From contig NZ_VNWN01000002.1 of NCBI RefSeq assembly GCF_012720115.1, positions 1,240,001-1,304,000 of the forward strand: DNA of 64,000 nucleotides, written 5' to 3'. A program made the translations under genes and the position numbers. The DNA comes from Sneathiella chinensis (GTDB lineage Bacteria > Pseudomonadota > Alphaproteobacteria > Sneathiellales > Sneathiellaceae). Shown in pieces: positions 30,978-38,179 of the stretch; position 1 is the stretch's first letter; each line of letters starts with the position of its first letter. The notes beneath the pieces were generated by a model that saw only the letters and a program-made list of their open reading frames with translations, was not told the origin of the DNA and did not search any database.

Positions 30978-32156
30978 ATGCAGCTTGTTAACTCTGTAAA
31001 AGCTCAGGATGTTGCCGTTCAGCGCGCTCTTGAGGATGTCCCACACTACGTCAACGAATGTGAAGCCCTGATCGCTGAGAATTGCAACGACAGCGTTCAC
31101 TTCCTGTATGCTGACAAGATCCGGGAAAAAGCGAGCCTGTTCCTGAATAATTTTCGGGGCAGCAGCCTGTATGCCATCAAGGCGAACCCGCATCCGGCCA
31201 TCATGAACCTGCTGTGGCATTATGGCGTGCGCAAGTTCGAAATGGCGTCCCTCAGGGAAATCGAATATGTGGTCAACATGTTCCCCGAGGCAGAGCTTTA
31301 TTTCATGCATCCGGTCAAAAGCCGGCAGGCCATTCGCGGCGCCTATGCGCTGGGGGTGCGGACCTTTGCGTTCGATTGTCTGGACGAATTGCGCAAGATC
31401 GAAGAAGAAACCGATCACGCATCCGATCTGTCCCTGTTTCTGCGGGTGCGCGTGGATCAGGTGAATGCGGCCTATCCGCTTAGCGACAAGTTCGGCGTTC
31501 CGGTACAGGAAGCCCCGCTGCTGATCCAGCGGGCGCAGCAGAATGCTCAAAAGGTTGGCCTGACCTTCCATGTGGGATCGCAATGCATGGACCCTGCCGC
31601 CTACAGCGAGGCGCTCAGCCAGATTGCGAACATGTTGTCCTCTTCCGGGGTGTCCATCGACAAGCTGGATATCGGCGGTGGTTTCCCGGTTTACTATCCG
31701 GGGATGGAACCGGGCTTGCTGGAAGGTTATTTTGATACCATTCATCGTGCCCTTGACGAACATGGTCTGGACACACTTGAATTGTACTGTGAGCCGGGCC
31801 GGGCACTGGTTGCCGAAGCCGGGGCGGTGGCCGTCCGCGTTGAAATGCGCAAGGGGCAGGCCCTGTATATGAATGACGGAACTTATGGCGCCCTGTTTGA
31901 TGCCGGTGTTCCGGGATGGACCTATCCGCTTGAACTGCGCAAGATGGACGGGGCCGAGGTGAGCGACGGCGCATTGCCGTTCCGCCTCTATGGGCCCACC
32001 TGCGACAGTTGCGACAAGATGGAAGGCCCGTTCGAATTGCCAGATAACATTGCCGAAGGGGACTGGGTTATCTTCCGTCACCTGGGGGCATACGGATATG
32101 CCATGCAGACCCGGTTCAACGGATTTTATTCCGAAACCATGGTCGCCATTGGCTGA
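30978..32156 (+). CDS. PLP fold-III amino acid decarboxylase (ornithine-decarboxylase type)
   Basis: The 392-residue alanine-racemase-fold decarboxylase has the pyridoxal-phosphate lysine Lys68 in LYAIKANPHP, the histidine of FHVGSQC, the glycine loop DIGGGFP, the phosphate-binding ELYCEPGRALVAE, and the active-site cysteine in YGPTCDSCD (about 337-345). GPTCDSCD and the short length match eukaryote-like ornithine/lysine decarboxylases found in alphaproteobacteria. The product should be putrescine (or cadaverine from lysine). It is the first gene of a three-gene operon with a DHS-like and an agmatinase-like gene, behind a structured leader. Confidence 0.9.
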   Translation: MQLVNSVKAQDVAVQRALEDVPHYVNECEALIAENCNDSVHFLYADKIREKASLFLNNFRGSSLYAIKANPHPAIMNLLWHYGVRKFEMASLREIEYVVNMFPEAELYFMHPVKSRQAIRGAYALGVRTFAFDCLDELRKIEEETDHASDLSLFLRVRVDQVNAAYPLSDKFGVPVQEAPLLIQRAQQNAQKVGLTFHVGSQCMDPAAYSEALSQIANMLSSSGVSIDKLDIGGGFPVYYPGMEPGLLEGYFDTIHRALDEHGLDTLELYCEPGRALVAEAGAVAVRVEMRKGQALYMNDGTYGALFDAGVPGWTYPLELRKMDGAEVSDGALPFRLYGPTCDSCDKMEGPFELPDNIAEGDWVIFRHLGAYGYAMQTRFNGFYSETMVAIG

Positions 32157-32185
32157 AACAACAAATTTTTGAAATCGAGAAGACT

Positions 32186-33223
32186 ATGACAGACTCCAAA
32201 CGCAGCAACGAGAAAGCAGACCTGCTTTCCAAGAAAGTTGAGCATATCGACATCAAGTCCTTTGATGCCCGCCCGATCGTCGAGGCTATGGACAAGATGG
32301 CTTTCACCTCACGCGATCTTGCGCGGGCCACAAAGATTTTCAACATGGCGGTCGAGGAACCCGACTGCGCCATCTTCCTGACGCTGGCTGGCTCCACGTC
32401 TGCTGGTGGCTGTATGCATGTGTATCGCGATCTGGTCGAGGCAGGCATGGTGGATGCGATTGTTTCCACCGGTGCCTCCATTGTTGACATGGACTTCTTC
32501 GAAGCCCTTGGATACAGCCACTATCAGGGCGATCCGTTCATGGATGACGGCAAGCTGCGCGATCTGTATATCGACCGGATTTACGATACCTATATCGACG
32601 AGGAAGAACTGCAGGCCTGTGACGAAAGCATCAAGATCATCGCCGATGGTCTGGAGCGCCGCCCCTATTCCTCCCGTGAGTTCATCTGGGAAATGGGCCG
32701 CTGGCTGAAAGAAAATTCCGTCAAGAAAGGCTCCCTGATCGAGACCTGCTACGACCATAATGTGCCGATCTTTGTGCCGGCCTTCTCTGACTGTTCCGCA
32801 GGCTTTGGTCTGGTCAAGCATCAGGTCGAGAATCCGGGCAACTATCTCAGCATCGACAGCGTTGCGGACTTCCGCGAACTGACCGACATCAAGATTGCTT
32901 CCGGCTCTTCCGGGCTGCTGATGGTGGGCGGCGGTGTGCCCAAGAACTTCGTTCAGGATACCGTTGTCTGTGCTGAAATCCTCGGCAAGGATGTCGAGAT
33001 GCACAAATATGCCGTTCAGATCACGGTTGCGGACGTGCGCGATGGCGCCTGTTCCTCTTCCACCCTGAAAGAGGCATCAAGCTGGGGCAAGGTTGATACC
33101 GTCTGGGAACAGATGGTCTATGCCGAGGCTTCTTCCGTTATTCCGCTGTTGGCGTCTGACGCCTATCACCGCGGTGCGTGGAAGAACCGTCCTCGCCGTA
33201 ACTTTGCGAACCTGTTCAAGTAA
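32186..33223 (+). CDS. Deoxyhypusine-synthase-like protein (probable homospermidine-forming)
   Basis: The 345-residue protein is clearly of the deoxyhypusine synthase family: FLTLAGSTSAGGCMHVYRDLV, DAIVSTGASIVDMDFFEALGY, VPIFVPAFSDCSAGFGL and KEASSWGKVDTVW, in which Lys302 matches the catalytic lysine that carries the aminobutyl intermediate. In eukaryotes the enzyme modifies eIF5A. Bacteria lack that protein, and homologues of this kind are thought to transfer the aminobutyl group to putrescine, giving homospermidine. That substrate is inferred here from the flanking decarboxylase and agmatinase genes. It starts 29 nt after the decarboxylase stop. Confidence 0.92.
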   Translation: MTDSKRSNEKADLLSKKVEHIDIKSFDARPIVEAMDKMAFTSRDLARATKIFNMAVEEPDCAIFLTLAGSTSAGGCMHVYRDLVEAGMVDAIVSTGASIVDMDFFEALGYSHYQGDPFMDDGKLRDLYIDRIYDTYIDEEELQACDESIKIIADGLERRPYSSREFIWEMGRWLKENSVKKGSLIETCYDHNVPIFVPAFSDCSAGFGLVKHQVENPGNYLSIDSVADFRELTDIKIASGSSGLLMVGGGVPKNFVQDTVVCAEILGKDVEMHKYAVQITVADVRDGACSSSTLKEASSWGKVDTVWEQMVYAEASSVIPLLASDAYHRGAWKNRPRRNFANLFK

Positions 33224-33237
33224 GGAATAACGGATCC

Positions 33238-34143
33238 ATGTCGAACCGTTTTGATATCCTGCCTCCCGAGGAAGGCTTTCTTGGCCTTGCGGATGAGGAT
33301 GCCGTTTCGTATGAGCAGGCTCGTGCGGTTGTGATCCCCTACGGCCTTGAGGCTTCCGTCAGCTATGGGGGCGGAACCGCCCTCGGCCCGGCGGCCATGA
33401 TCGAGGCAAGCCATCAGGTGGAACTGTTCGATGAGGAGTTCTGGAAAGAGGCTTTCCGTGATTACGGCGTTGTCACCCTGGCCGAGAAAACCGTGGATGG
33501 AACCAATATTCCGGCGGCGCTTGATGAACTGGAAGCGCACACCACGGCGGTCCTGCAAGATGGAAAATTCCCCCTCGTTTTTGGGGGGGAACATTCCATC
33601 ACACCTGGGGCGATCCGGCCTTTCCTGAAAAATTATGATGATCTGATCATCCTGCATTTTGATGCCCATGCCGATCTTCGGGACGGCTACGAAGGGGAGC
33701 ATTACTCTCATGCTGCGGCCATTCGCCGGGTTCTGGATCATCCGACGGTGCCAATTGTCTCCATCGGGATCCGCAACATCTCTGCCGAGGAAATTCCCTT
33801 CCTTGACGAGAACCGGGACCGGATCACTATTCACTGGGGCAAGGATCGTGACCAGTGGGATGTGGCTGAGATTGTCAAATCCCTGAAGGGACGGAATATC
33901 TATCTGACCTTTGATCTGGATGGATTTGACAGTTCCCTGATGCCGGCAACCGGCACACCTGAGCCGGGCGGCGTTTTCTGGAGCGATGCCATGGCCATCA
34001 TTCGGGCGGCGTCTGAAATCGGCACCATTGTGGGGGCCGATATCAACGAACTGGCCCCGATTGAAGGATATCACGCCCCGAATTTCTTGGCCGCCAAACT
34101 GGCCTATAAAATCCTGAATTTCTCGTTGGCCAGCAAGGCTTAA
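33238..34143 (+). CDS. speB: Agmatinase-family ureohydrolase
   Basis: The 301-residue arginase-fold protein has all manganese-ligand motifs: FGGEHS (His), HFDAHADLRD (three ligands) and TFDLDGFDSSLMPATGTPEPGG. The glutamate of GADINELAP is also present. Family members hydrolyse agmatine to putrescine and urea. The FDGF variation next to the second aspartate pair differs from the usual DVDALDPA, and no arginine decarboxylase gene is in the window, so another guanidino substrate is possible. It begins 14 nt after the DHS-like gene and ends the operon. Confidence 0.87.
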   Translation: MSNRFDILPPEEGFLGLADEDAVSYEQARAVVIPYGLEASVSYGGGTALGPAAMIEASHQVELFDEEFWKEAFRDYGVVTLAEKTVDGTNIPAALDELEAHTTAVLQDGKFPLVFGGEHSITPGAIRPFLKNYDDLIILHFDAHADLRDGYEGEHYSHAAAIRRVLDHPTVPIVSIGIRNISAEEIPFLDENRDRITIHWGKDRDQWDVAEIVKSLKGRNIYLTFDLDGFDSSLMPATGTPEPGGVFWSDAMAIIRAASEIGTIVGADINELAPIEGYHAPNFLAAKLAYKILNFSLASKA

Positions 34144-34371: not shown

Positions 34372-36522
34372 ATGATGATGGCAATGAAAACACAAAAAAA
34401 ATATAAAAACTCCGCCGATTGGTTGGAAGGGATTGCGCATTACTTCTCTTTGCGGAATGGCTTTTCCAGTCTTCTGAAGGTGCTGATTGTCTTTAATCTG
34501 GTTGGCTTGCTTCTGATCGGTGTCGGGATCGGTTCCGCCCGCGCCGCTGATGATTTTTCCGAACTGGTGATGGTTCCCATGGACCGCCTGTATGTGGAGC
34601 AAGGGCAGACCCCTGCCGTTCCCGTTCAGGCTGATATTCTCTCCACCCGCATCCAGTCTGTTGTGACCGGGCCGATTGTTCGGACCGTTGTGTCGCAATC
34701 CTTTTCCAATTCAGGTCAGGACTGGATGGAGGGAATATACTATTTCCCGCTGCCGGATGGGGCGGCGGTTGATCGGATGGTCCTGCGGATCGGGGAGCGG
34801 ATCATACAGTCGGAAATTCAGGAACGGGCCGAAGCCAAAAGAACCTATGAGAAGGCGGCCGCCGAAGGGCGTGTCGCCAGCCTGCTGACCCAGTATCGCC
34901 CCAACATGTTTTCAACGCGGGTGGCGAATATCGAGCCGGGCGCGACGATCAATGTGGAAATCGCCTTTCAGACATTGGCCGAACAGGACGGCGCCACGCT
35001 TTCATGGCGGATGCCACAGGCCATTACCCCGCGTTATCAGCCGGCAACCGCGCGCAGCTTCGAGGCAACGACCGTTTCAACTTCTGCCGAGGGCAGCCGT
35101 GTGGATGAGGCCGGGGCCATCAGCCGCGAGGAGAATTACAGCCGGGAAGGCGGCACAAACCCCACGGCCTTTTCGATCATTGTCAATGGCGGCAACCGCC
35201 TCGCCAGTCTGGGCAGCCCAACCCACCAGATTGTGGTGAAGGATGTGGACGGGGCCCGGAAACAGGTCACCCTGAAGGAAGGGGCCCTGCCTGCCGATCG
35301 GGATTTTGTCCTTAAATGGCGGTTGCCGGTGGGGAATGATCTGTCCTCTTTCCTGTTTCAGGAAGAGCAGGATGGTGTGTTCTATACGCTGGGATTGGTC
35401 GCGCCGCCGCAACTTGATGCCAGCCAGACAGTCTCTCCCCGGGATGTGACATTTGTTATGGATGTGTCCGGTTCCATGCACGGGCCTGCCATTGAACAGG
35501 GGAAAACCGCGCTTCTGAAAGCGCTGGACCTTCTGACGCCGCAGGATCGCTTCGAGATTATCGCGTTTGACAGTAATTTTTACCCCTTGTTCGGCAAGGT
35601 GCAATCGGCCACGCCTGAGGCATTGCAGGCGGGGCGGGATTTCGTCAGTGGTCTTGAAGCCGACAGCGGAACGGAAATGTATCCCGCCCTTGAGGCCGCG
35701 CTTGGATATGGTGCCGATCCGGCATTCAATCGCCAGATCATGTTCCTGACCGATGGCGCCGTTGGCAACGAGGAAGAGATGTTTTCCTTGGTCGAAAGGA
35801 AACTCGGTGATGCCCGCCTGTTTACGGTTGGCCTTGGCAGTGCACCCAATAGCTGGTTCATGCGAAAGGCCGCGGAGTTTGGCCGGGGCATCCATGTGCA
35901 TATCGACAATATCGAAGCGGCTGGTATCACGCTTGAAAAACTGTTCGAGGACATGACCCGGCCCGGTTACCGGAATGTGGGGCTGGACGGAGCGGGTGAG
36001 GCCGCCGTCTATCCGCAGGCCTTGTCCGACATGTTTGGGGAACGGCCGTTGATTTTTGTGGCTGCCAGCGAGCAAGGGCCTTTGGCGCCGACACTGGTGG
36101 CAGAGGATGCAGATGGGCGCGCCGTCAGTTTTCCAATGAAGGATGCCGAGGCAACCCCGCAGGCCGGGATCGCCAAATACTGGGCCCGCAAGAAGATTGA
36201 GGGCCTGATGGATGCCCGGGCGCGGGGAATGGACCCGGCAATCGTCCGGGAGGCCGTTCTTGATGTGGCATTGAAGCATGAGATCATGAGTGAATTCACC
36301 AGTTTTGTCGCCGTTGACAAGACACCGGCACGGGTGCAGCAGGACTTTCTGAAGAAGGTCCGGCAATCCATGAATATGCCAGCAGGAACCAGCTGGGACA
36401 AAATTCATGGTCTGCAAACGGCGACGACAATGGAACTGAATTTGCTGGCAGGGTTGCTTGCCCTCGGCATGGCCGGAATTGGTATGTTTATGTATCGGCG
36501 GAGTAGGAAGACGACATGGTAA
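34372..36522 (+). CDS. Sortase target protein with VIT and von Willebrand A domains
   Basis: The 716-residue protein has a delayed signal sequence (basic stretch MKTQKKYKN, hydrophobic core near residues 35-56, ending GSARA), a VIT domain (about 65-200, with FPLPDGAAVDRMVLRIGERII) and a vWA domain starting at DVSGSMHGPA (about residue 362) with MIDAS Asp/Ser/Ser. The C-terminus has a membrane helix (LNLLAGLLALGMAGIGMFMY) and the basic tail RRSRK, as in the marine proteobacterial sortase targets. The expected LPxT signal is absent: the nearest match is LQTAT, with no proline. The sortase gene overlaps its end by 7 nt. AGGA precedes the ATG at 34372. Confidence 0.88.
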   Translation: MMMAMKTQKKYKNSADWLEGIAHYFSLRNGFSSLLKVLIVFNLVGLLLIGVGIGSARAADDFSELVMVPMDRLYVEQGQTPAVPVQADILSTRIQSVVTGPIVRTVVSQSFSNSGQDWMEGIYYFPLPDGAAVDRMVLRIGERIIQSEIQERAEAKRTYEKAAAEGRVASLLTQYRPNMFSTRVANIEPGATINVEIAFQTLAEQDGATLSWRMPQAITPRYQPATARSFEATTVSTSAEGSRVDEAGAISREENYSREGGTNPTAFSIIVNGGNRLASLGSPTHQIVVKDVDGARKQVTLKEGALPADRDFVLKWRLPVGNDLSSFLFQEEQDGVFYTLGLVAPPQLDASQTVSPRDVTFVMDVSGSMHGPAIEQGKTALLKALDLLTPQDRFEIIAFDSNFYPLFGKVQSATPEALQAGRDFVSGLEADSGTEMYPALEAALGYGADPAFNRQIMFLTDGAVGNEEEMFSLVERKLGDARLFTVGLGSAPNSWFMRKAAEFGRGIHVHIDNIEAAGITLEKLFEDMTRPGYRNVGLDGAGEAAVYPQALSDMFGERPLIFVAASEQGPLAPTLVAEDADGRAVSFPMKDAEATPQAGIAKYWARKKIEGLMDARARGMDPAIVREAVLDVALKHEIMSEFTSFVAVDKTPARVQQDFLKKVRQSMNMPAGTSWDKIHGLQTATTMELNLLAGLLALGMAGIGMFMYRRSRKTTW

Positions 36523-37106
36523 AAAGAGTACTGTTCTGTTTCTCGATTGTTGTGATGCTGGCCCTTGCGGCATGGCAGCTTGGACAGGCCGGATTGCTGG
36601 CCGCAAAGGCTTGGGCCGCCCCGATCCTGATCGAGCAGGCCTGGACACAGGGACAGTTGAGCGGACAGGCAGTAAAACCCTGGCGGTGGGGCGATAGCGC
36701 CCCCATTGCCCGGCTGGAGGAGCCGGGGCAGGGAGTGACCCGTTTCGTGATGGATGGCGGTAACATGCGGAACCTCGCGTTCGGACCGGTCCTGAGTGAG
36801 GACAAGGGGCGGACCATCCTGTACGGTCACCGGGACACCCATTTCCGTTTTTTGAAATCCGTTGAGGCGGGCGATGTGTTTTCCTTCCAGAAGCTGGGGG
36901 AAGAGGCGGAAAGCTGGACGGTATCGAAGCGTTTTATCGCCGATGCGGACAACCTTTACTTGCCCGTCGGACAAACGGATGGGTCTTTATTCCTGATTAC
37001 CTGTTACCCCTTTGACAGCCTTGATCCGGATACGGATCAGCGTCTTGTGGTTGAACTGGTTCGCGAGGGGCCGGCGCCTGCAAGTCTTTCGCTGGCCGAT
37101 CTTTAA
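36516..37106 (+). CDS. Class GN (marine proteobacterial) sortase
   Basis: The 196-residue protein has an N-terminal membrane anchor (about 5-35) and a sortase barrel with the catalytic triad His105 (LYGHRDTHF), Cys163 (LITCYPFD) and Arg176 (DQRLVVE). This class is found in Gram-negative bacteria and is normally encoded beside a single VIT/vWA substrate, as here. It should cleave the C-terminal signal of the upstream protein on the periplasmic side. The acceptor is not known for this class. The ATG overlaps the substrate gene by 7 nt. Confidence 0.92.
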   Translation: MVKRVLFCFSIVVMLALAAWQLGQAGLLAAKAWAAPILIEQAWTQGQLSGQAVKPWRWGDSAPIARLEEPGQGVTRFVMDGGNMRNLAFGPVLSEDKGRTILYGHRDTHFRFLKSVEAGDVFSFQKLGEEAESWTVSKRFIADADNLYLPVGQTDGSLFLITCYPFDSLDPDTDQRLVVELVREGPAPASLSLADL

Positions 37107-37384
37107 GGTTCTTTTTGCCGCACAAGGGCCTTGGCAGGCGGTGTGCGCCGCTCTAGTTTCCTCATGACTTGTAAACATTTGCCCTGATGTTTCAAACCAC
37201 GCTGGATTGGATAAACAAAGCCATGGTAGAAGCAGGGAATGAGTGAACAACCTGCGTGTTTGACTGTCTCTTTTCTGTAAGGCGCCTATGCCTGTGAAAG
37301 GGGCATTCGGCCCGCTCCAACAAGATGCCTGATCGGCAGGGGCTAGCCCTGTTTTACGCGGCGAACCAAGAAGAAGGGCCTTCA

Positions 37385-38179
37385 GTGCTTTTATTGCAGA
37401 TTATCGTGTTGGCGGTTGTCCAGGGCGTGACAGAATTCCTCCCGATTTCCTCCAGTGGGCATCTGCTGCTGGTTCCCCTTCTGACAGACTGGCCCGATCA
37501 GGGGCTGGAGCTGGATATCGCAACCCATGTGGGCACCTTGCTGGCGGTTCTTCTGTTTTTCCGGTCGGACCTTTGGGGGATGACGCAAGCCCTGTTCAAT
37601 CGGGGGGACAGTCCTGAACTCGGGCGGCGATTGATTGGCCATCTGATTTTGGGGTCCATCCCCGCAGTCATTGCAGGCGGGCTTCTGTTCTATCTGTTCA
37701 TGATTGATTTCAGATCGCTTCTGGTGATCGCGGCCACGACCATTCTTTTCGGGGTCCTGCTGGGATTTGCGGACTGGCGCTTCAAGGGGACCAGAACGCT
37801 GGACCAGATGACCCGGTTTGATGCCCTGTTTATCGGTTTTTTTCAGGTTTTTGCCCTTATTCCGGGGTCCAGCCGGTCCGGTGTGACCATGACGGCGGCC
37901 CTGCTGAGCGGTTTTGAGCGCAAGGAAGCCGCCCGGTTTTCCATGCTGCTGTCCATTCCGGTCATTGTCGGGGCGGGGCTGGTGGCGGGGATCAAGCTGT
38001 ATAGCCAGCAAAACCTGCAGATGGAGACAGATGCCCTTATTGTTGGCGGCATATCCTTTGCTGTCGCTTTTTGCGTGATCAGCCTGTTGATGCGCTGGAT
38101 CCAGACGGTGGGGTTCATGCCGTTTGTGATCTATCGGTTGTTGTTGGGCGCGTATCTGCTGGCGGTCTATTTCGCCTGA
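37385..38179 (+). CDS. uppP: Undecaprenyl-diphosphatase (UppP/BacA)
   Basis: The 264-residue membrane protein has about eight helices. The catalytic motifs are VVQGVTEFLPISSSGHLLL (about 11-29) and FALIPGSSRSGVTMTAALLSGF (about 155-176), each with the conserved Glu or Arg/Ser residues of BacA. It removes a phosphate from undecaprenyl pyrophosphate to recycle the lipid carrier of peptidoglycan and O-antigen and gives some bacitracin resistance. The GTG at 37385 is preferred: AAGAAGGG lies 6 nt before it and the family N-terminus starts there. The 278-nt gap upstream shows no gene. Confidence 0.93.
   Translation: MLLLQIIVLAVVQGVTEFLPISSSGHLLLVPLLTDWPDQGLELDIATHVGTLLAVLLFFRSDLWGMTQALFNRGDSPELGRRLIGHLILGSIPAVIAGGLLFYLFMIDFRSLLVIAATTILFGVLLGFADWRFKGTRTLDQMTRFDALFIGFFQVFALIPGSSRSGVTMTAALLSGFERKEAARFSMLLSIPVIVGAGLVAGIKLYSQQNLQMETDALIVGGISFAVAFCVISLLMRWIQTVGFMPFVIYRLLLGAYLLAVYFA

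What the first reader, a model, noticed from the sequence alone, without database searches (positions are those of the whole stretch)
34372..37106. Gram-negative sortase pair whose substrate lacks the usual proline in its sorting signal
The VIT/vWA protein has the anchor helix and basic tail, and the sortase has a full His-Cys-Arg triad, but no LPxT sequence precedes the helix. The nearest is LQTAT (about residues 683-687). Either this sortase recognises a shifted motif or the proline was lost. The acceptor in Gram-negative envelopes is not known.
Basis: partly seen in the sequence, partly recalled or inferred. Interest (0 to 1): 0.65.

Follow-up and report, generated by a model that had tools for sequence, protein, structure and literature searches.

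The report
Gram-negative sortase with drifted sorting signal
A bacterium carries a known Gram-negative protein-anchoring enzyme and its one partner protein, whose recognition tag has lost both of the letters usually expected at its start; relatives show this drift is real, repeated and possibly matched by changes in the enzyme's pocket.

Summary
The pair is real: a TIGR03788 VIT/vWA target (34372-36522) and a TIGR03784-like class GN sortase (36516-37106) with an intact His-Cys-Arg triad, overlapping by 7 bases. The tag before the membrane helix reads G-L-Q-T-A-T, not LPxT. In seven of nine near relatives the same place reads [G/A]P[Q/K]TA[T/S], so the proline was substituted by leucine, not deleted from LPQTAT; the leucine of LPxT was already gone in this clade. 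The other two (TLATAT, ALATAT) also have leucine, and the tree needs two separate origins (AU p 0.009), which argues against a sequencing error. Across 215 distinct class GN pairs, proline is missing in 34, with at least 13 changes on the tree. On the enzyme side, the residue two before the catalytic His, which lies under the P3 residue in SrtE1, is Tyr/Phe in 27 pairs, all with non-canonical tags, and in 0 of 161 canonical pairs; but this rests on three origins and is not significant in independent contrasts. I read it as a working pair with a drifted tag: a new variant of a known kind. Processing and the acceptor remain untested.

The parts
34372..36522 (+). VIT/vWA sortase target (TIGR03788), with a signal peptide ending about SARA/ADDF (read by eye), VIT domain, vWA domain with DVSGS and LTDG metal-site motifs
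   Evidence: TIGR03788 586.6 bits, cut-off 551.65; Pfam VIT and VWA_3; DVSGS at 35461, LTDGA at 35746; start chosen by AGGA 8 bases upstream
36409..36426 (+). sorting signal G-L-Q-T-A-T (P4 to P2'), codons GGT CTG CAA ACG GCG ACG
   Evidence: aligned with GPQTAT in relatives
36427..36519 (+). membrane helix and basic tail (ending MYRRSRKTTW)
   Evidence: sequence
36516..37106 (+). class GN sortase with N-terminal membrane helix; triad H105 (36828-36830), C163 (37002-37004), R176 (37041-37043)
   Evidence: TIGR03784 148.4 bits, just under cut-off 158.25; Pfam Sortase 53 bits; AlphaFold2 model pLDDT 91.8 matches sortases, best Z 15.9 to class D 4d70
36822..36824 (+). Tyr103, two residues before the catalytic His; Ala, Gly, Ser, Thr, Val, Leu or Ile in canonical class GN sortases
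   Evidence: by its place before the His it corresponds to Ala249 of SrtE1 (His251), which packs on P3 (PMC5148588 passages)

Best explanation
A dedicated sortase and its only substrate. The VIT/vWA protein is exported, held in the inner membrane by its C-terminal helix, and cut by the neighbouring sortase between T696 and A697 of G-L-Q-T-A-T, then joined to an unknown acceptor. The tag drifted in two steps: the P4 leucine was replaced by a small residue (Gly, Ala or Thr) in the ancestor of this alphaproteobacterial clade, and later the P3 proline was replaced by leucine in this lineage, separately from two congeners. Shown here: the gene pair, the substitution, two origins of Leu in the genus, recurrent change at P3 in the class, and one sortase with one such tag found in the genome. 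Inferred: that the tag is still cut, the cut site, the order of the steps, and that Tyr103 and the shortened loop before the catalytic His fit the pocket to a tag without Leu-Pro.
For: Target over, sortase just under the family cut-off; triad and TC motif kept. Target in 9 of 24 and sortase in 10 of 24 genomes of the genus, the 9 being within the 10; in the tenth (G016) the sortase frame runs to the end of the contig, where the target would lie. Signals in the window and nine relatives: xxxTA[TS] in 10 of 10, P3 Pro in 7, Leu in 3. AU test rejects window+G003+G004 as one clade, p 0.0087. G003 uses TTA and G004 CTT for this Leu, so it has outlasted a silent change. P3 not Pro in 34 of 215 distinct pairs, at least 13 changes on a quick sortase tree. 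Tyr/Phe at His-2 in 24 of 24 pairs with small P4+Pro or P3 Leu and 0 of 161 canonical pairs.
Against: No processing data. The enzyme-side link has three origins only: in 12 independent contrasts of canonical against other tags it goes the expected way in 3, the opposite way in 0, and does not differ in the rest (p 0.25); for P3 Pro against non-Pro, of 13 contrasts 2 go the expected way and about 1 the opposite way; on well-supported branches alone only 1 contrast is left. Without the GP clade the His-2 column ranks 18th of 188. Many non-Pro tags have no aromatic at His-2: P3 Ala 17 of 19 without Tyr/Phe, P3 Val 2 of 3, P3 Gly/Ser/Thr 8 of 8. In the window the change is a single base (CCG to CTG) in one assembly.
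Confidence: 0.72

Rival explanations
1. The tag is decaying: Leu at P3 abolishes cutting, and the protein simply stays anchored in the inner membrane by its helix while the sortase idles or is on its way out.
For: Other sortases depend on P3: Ala there disrupts class A and B processing, and a class D enzyme does not process LAETG (PMC5148588 passages). The target is patchy, in 6 of 17 good-quality genomes of the genus.
Against: Sortase frame, triad and TC motif intact. The T-A-T core, helix and basic tail are kept, and G003 and G004 share Leu across deep divergence.
Confidence: 0.15
2. The real signal is the MPAGTS stretch that starts 11 residues upstream of the tag and looks like the LPQGST tags of other class GN targets.
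For: [LM]PxG[TL] stands there in 6 of 10 of the clade's tails. It starts 48 residues from the C-terminus, inside the range of 29-78 seen for tags (median 37, window tag 37), so distance alone does not exclude it.
Against: Absent from 4 of 10 tails that keep xxxTA[TS]. A loosely defined [LIM]PxG/H element occurs within 70 residues before the assigned tag in 122 of 215 pairs, so it looks like a separate element; one PEP-CTERM relative without class GN sortase (L122) carries a similar LPMxxG stretch.
Confidence: 0.05
3. Sequencing or assembly error turned CCG into CTG.
For: One transition would do it; only one assembly of this genome was available.
Against: 99% complete genome in 19 contigs; two congeners also have Leu.
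Confidence: 0.04

Closest known systems
Class GN sortase TIGR03784 with target TIGR03788 (Gram-negative dedicated sortase and VIT/vWA target)
   Same: Domain order, adjacency, one sortase and one target in the genome, helix and basic tail; the pairing is in print (PMC3237569, passages)
   Different: Tag GLQTAT instead of LPxT-like; sortase scores 148.4 against cut-off 158.25; shorter loop before the catalytic His and Tyr103
Class E sortase, LAXTG signal (SrtE1)
   Same: Accepts a non-proline residue at P3; a tyrosine near the S3 site is the proposed cause (PMC5148588, abstract and passages)
   Different: There it is Tyr229 in the beta3/beta4 loop and P3 is Ala; here Tyr103 is at His-2 and P3 is Leu. 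The window sortase had no class E match at E 1e-3, though 35 of 42 aligned homologues do
Class D sortase (2LN7, 4D70; LPxTATN signal)
   Same: Only sequence match in the PDB at E 0.01 (2LN7, E 7e-7) and first by structure (4d70, Z 15.9, rmsd 2.6, 140 aligned, with sortases of other classes within 1-2); T-A-T core (class D signal by the NCBIfam model name)
   Different: 45.3 bits against cut-off 165 for class D; a class D enzyme is reported not to process LAETG

Membership tests
class GN sortase (TIGR03784) | score over the curated cut-off 158.25 | tested here: not met
   148.4 bits. Of 10 relatives scored, L001 (166.9), L006, L009, L010, L014 and L037 pass; L002 157.7, L003 136.2, L004 134.9 and L005 152.0 fall short
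class GN sortase (TIGR03784) | best-scoring sortase class among NCBIfam models | tested here: met
   148.4 against 45.3 for class D
class GN sortase (TIGR03784) | sortase fold with His-Cys-Arg triad | tested here: met
class GN sortase (TIGR03784) | encoded next to a TIGR03788 target | tested here: met
sortase target TIGR03788 | score over the curated cut-off 551.65 | tested here: met
   586.6 bits
sortase target TIGR03788 | LPXTG-like signal before helix and basic tail (definition partly recalled) | tested here: not met
   GLQTAT: T-A-T, helix and tail present, L and P absent
class E sortase | match to the class E model | tested here: not met
   no match at E 1e-3 for the window protein; 35 of 42 aligned homologues match at that level, best E 1e-18
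dedicated sortase system with pdsO partner (TIGR03789) | pdsO over cut-off 152.2 in the genome | tested here: not met
   seven matches, best 57.5 bits, 0 over cut-off; the kinase and regulator of that system (recalled) were not searched
any sortase system | substrate is cut and transferred | not testable with these tools
   needs experiment

The most novel reading that the evidence does not exclude
The alphaproteobacterial clade holding this window has a distinct sortase subclass that reads [G/A/T]-[P/L]-x-[T/G]-A-[T/S]: bulk was moved from the tag (Leu at P4, Pro at P3) to the enzyme (Tyr/Phe two before the catalytic His, in most with a loop cut from 18 to 12 residues), and a similar exchange arose separately in Photobacterium/Enterovibrio and in Glaciecola-type relatives.
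Probability: 0.4. Interest if true: 0.62.

Novelty: new variant of a known kind. Interest (0 to 1): 0.45.

Why it matters
Proline at P3 is the norm in sortase signals (about 90% of known ones, PMC5148588 passages), class E being the known exception. Class GN has changed it many times while keeping one enzyme beside one substrate, so each species is a natural two-part experiment in specificity. If the pocket change is real, it gives a simple rule for altered peptide ligases. Searches for Gram-negative sortase substrates by LPxT would miss this clade. The role of class GN sortases is called unknown in print (PMC10581121, passages).

Tried and rejected
Rejected: deletion of P from LPQTAT (the nearest relatives align without gaps). 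Rejected as less likely: MPAGTS as the signal. Considered as a clue to the acceptor and not used: the undecaprenyl-diphosphatase-like gene at 37325-38179 lies downstream of the pair in 8 of 9 relative loci of the clade (the ninth, L002, ends 428 bases after the sortase match), but in 0 of 7 loci outside the genus, whose flanks on that side reach only 0.9 to 6 kb; the three upstream metabolic genes are together directly upstream in 4 of 9 (a session note that called the whole neighbourhood conserved overstated this). Rejected: a second substrate in the genome with the same tail: only the known one, the next match is E 3.8; this profile would miss a tail that differs much. Rejected: a universal rule that non-Pro tags need an aromatic His-2. 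Tested without success: independent contrasts are too few for significance. Another column, residue 94 in the loop before the His, ranks third in the whole set and first without the GP clade (mostly Met/Leu/Val/Ile in canonical pairs, often polar in the others), and its contrasts are not significant either. No dN/dS was run: the nearest relatives are about 54% identical. In the 50 rows shown of each structure list no class GN sortase was named. Literature searches; none of the listings showed a study of class GN signal variation, but listings were capped and only open-licence papers are held.

Rows left out before the count of 215: of 233 assembled pairs, 14 duplicates and 4 whose catalytic motif the pattern missed or that were truncated (L043, L134, L227, L276; tags VPGTAS, LPKTAT, LPKTAL, MPSTAL, i.e. 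canonical). Before that: L001, L003, L004 (same loci as L057, L059, L061), targets without a class GN sortase found in the locus (L098, L121-L123, L160-L164, L217, L274), truncated or broken targets (L102, L120) and the sortase without target L069. In the Alteromonas-type family f190, 97 of the 131 genomes with a match were read. Tags of the first 89 targets (88 with a sortase) and the next 34 were read by eye, the rest by a scoring script with 14 corrections by eye.

Full report
What is there. The window holds a VIT/vWA protein (34372-36522) and a sortase (36516-37106) whose start overlaps the target's end by seven bases. The target passes the curated cut-off of TIGR03788, the sortase target family (586.6 against 551.65 bits); the sortase is best matched by TIGR03784, class GN, but falls just short (148.4 against 158.25), with class D far behind at 45.3. 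The vWA domain keeps DVSGS and LTDG motifs of a metal site (the meaning is from general knowledge). The sortase model begins with a long helix and its H105, C163 and R176 are invariant in 42 aligned sequences. AlphaFold2 gives a confident model (pLDDT 91.8, pTM 0.83) that matches sortases of several classes, first a class D enzyme (4d70, Z 15.9, rmsd 2.6, 140 aligned), with others within 1 to 2 units of Z. The genome (3.55 Mb, 19 contigs) gave one match for the sortase family, one for TIGR03788 and no credible second copy of the C-terminal tail.

The tag. The tail reads KIHGLQTATTMELNLLAGLLALGMAGIGMFMYRRSRKTTW. In the genus, 9 of 24 genomes hold the target and 10 of 24 a sortase. With one further close contig (L002) that makes ten tags: GLQTAT (window), GPQTAT three times, GPQTAS, APQTAT, GPKTAS, GPKTAT, ALATAT and TLATAT. 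So the T-A-[TS] core is in ten of ten, proline in seven, leucine in three. The nearest tails align without gaps around the tag, so this is a substitution (in the window CCN to CTG), not the loss of a codon from LPQTAT. The leucine of LPxT is Gly, Ala or Thr in the whole group, and GP tags reach into family f105 and one genome of another family, f181 (L005, L105, L114, L118, L119, L156, L207-L216). The 21 sortases of this kind in a careful tree of 38 chosen rows form one clade (support 98/97).

Two origins of leucine. A tree of the target without its tail puts G003 and G004 together, with the proline-bearing G008 and G022 as their sister group and the window outside; the smallest number of changes to Leu is two, and the AU test rejects joining window, G003 and G004 (p 0.0087). 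The branch that places the window next to these four is only moderately supported (87/87). The codons are CTG, CTT and TTA. A single sequencing error is therefore an unlikely explanation.

How common it is. From one scan of genome contigs (44 loci) and searches of 24 genus, 385 class, 398 phylum, 295 family and 43 order genomes (the groups overlap) I assembled 215 distinct sortase-target pairs. P3 is Pro in 181, Ala in 19, Leu 4, Gly 4, Val 3, Thr 2, Ser 2; P4 is Leu in 124; P1 is Thr in 180 and Gly in 33; P1' is Ala in 178; P2' is Thr in 139. So proline (84%) is kept about as often as the P1 Thr or the P1' Ala (84% and 83%) over the whole class; it is within the window's own clade that the T-A core outlasts it. 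On a quick tree of the sortase, the Pro/non-Pro state changes at least 13 times. Tree support is patchy, so the number is rough. The sampling is not random: it leans on Alphaproteobacteria and on the Alteromonas-type family.

The enzyme side. The residue two before the catalytic His is Tyr or Phe in 27 of 215 sortases. All 27 have a non-canonical tag: 20 of 20 with small P4 and Pro, 4 of 4 with P3 Leu, 1 of 3 with P3 Val, 2 of 19 with P3 Ala. None of 161 pairs with a bulky P4 followed by Pro has it. In Streptomyces SrtE1 the corresponding Ala249 (catalytic His251) packs against the P3 side chain, and a tyrosine in a neighbouring loop is proposed to favour Ala over Pro (PMC5148588, abstract and passages; the correspondence is mine, by distance to the His). 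Fifteen of fifteen clade members in the first table also have a loop of 12 residues before that point, where most others have 18; two later members (L214, L216) have a longer one. Of 188 columns, this one ranks first in separating canonical from other tags, but 18th when the GP clade is left out. It has only three origins; in 12 independent contrasts it goes the expected way in 3 and the other way in 0 (p 0.25), and with P3 alone as the trait, 2 and about 1 of 13. I therefore treat it as a good hypothesis, not a result. The pattern was noticed in the first table and then held in the later pairs in the sense that no later canonical pair had an aromatic there; but later pairs also showed that many non-Pro tags lack it.

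Mechanism. Export, helix stop, cutting at T696/A697 and transfer to an acceptor are inferred from the family. The acceptor stays unknown: no pdsO partner passes its cut-off. An undecaprenyl-diphosphatase-like gene follows the pair in 8 of 9 relative loci of the clade but in none of seven loci outside the genus, within short flanks; its product's link to lipid carriers is tempting, but the pattern is also what plain genus synteny would give. A paper of 2011 already shows LPXTG tails on these vault-like proteins beside a dedicated Gram-negative sortase, and PEP-CTERM or GlyGly-CTERM tails on others (PMC3237569, passages).

Verdict. Observation confirmed; interpretation partly right. It is a class GN pair, slightly under the family cut-off on the sortase side, in which the tag has drifted further than usual. 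The wider point, that class GN signals change proline repeatedly and perhaps trade bulk with the enzyme, is the part worth testing.

Noticed in passing
L121-L123, L160-L164: TIGR03788-like proteins that end in PEP-CTERM-like tails and had no class GN sortase in the fetched locus: the same protein family seems to have switched sorting systems.
   Followed up: partly
L217 (G233:C6:10321-12066): Second TIGR03788-like protein in a genome that has a GP-type pair; it ends in a glycine-rich GlyGly-CTERM-like tail.
   Followed up: no
L195-L204, L206: Families f238 and f240 in the order of G322 have tags GGRTAT, GGRGAT, GSRGAT, GVRTAT, GVPTAT, HTRTAT, NTRTAT, RAQGAT, WAQGAT: no Pro at P3, often Arg at P2, and no aromatic at His-2.
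   Followed up: partly
L170, L171, L180, L181, L186, L192, L243: Tag LPQTDG: Asp at P1' in place of Ala or Gly, in one group of the Alteromonas-type family.
   Followed up: no
window 37325-38179: Undecaprenyl-diphosphatase-like gene (named by eye) directly after the sortase; same order in 8 of 9 relative loci of the clade, not found in seven loci outside the genus within short flanks.
   Followed up: partly
window 30978-34143: PLP decarboxylase, deoxyhypusine-synthase-like and agmatinase-like genes in a row upstream, together in 4 of 9 relative loci at 61-85% identity, against 45-58% for the sortase pair; names are by eye, no family search was run.
   Followed up: partly
L064 (G020:C15): The target is cut at the contig end and a short piece of it lies on the opposite strand there, probably an assembly artefact.
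   Followed up: no
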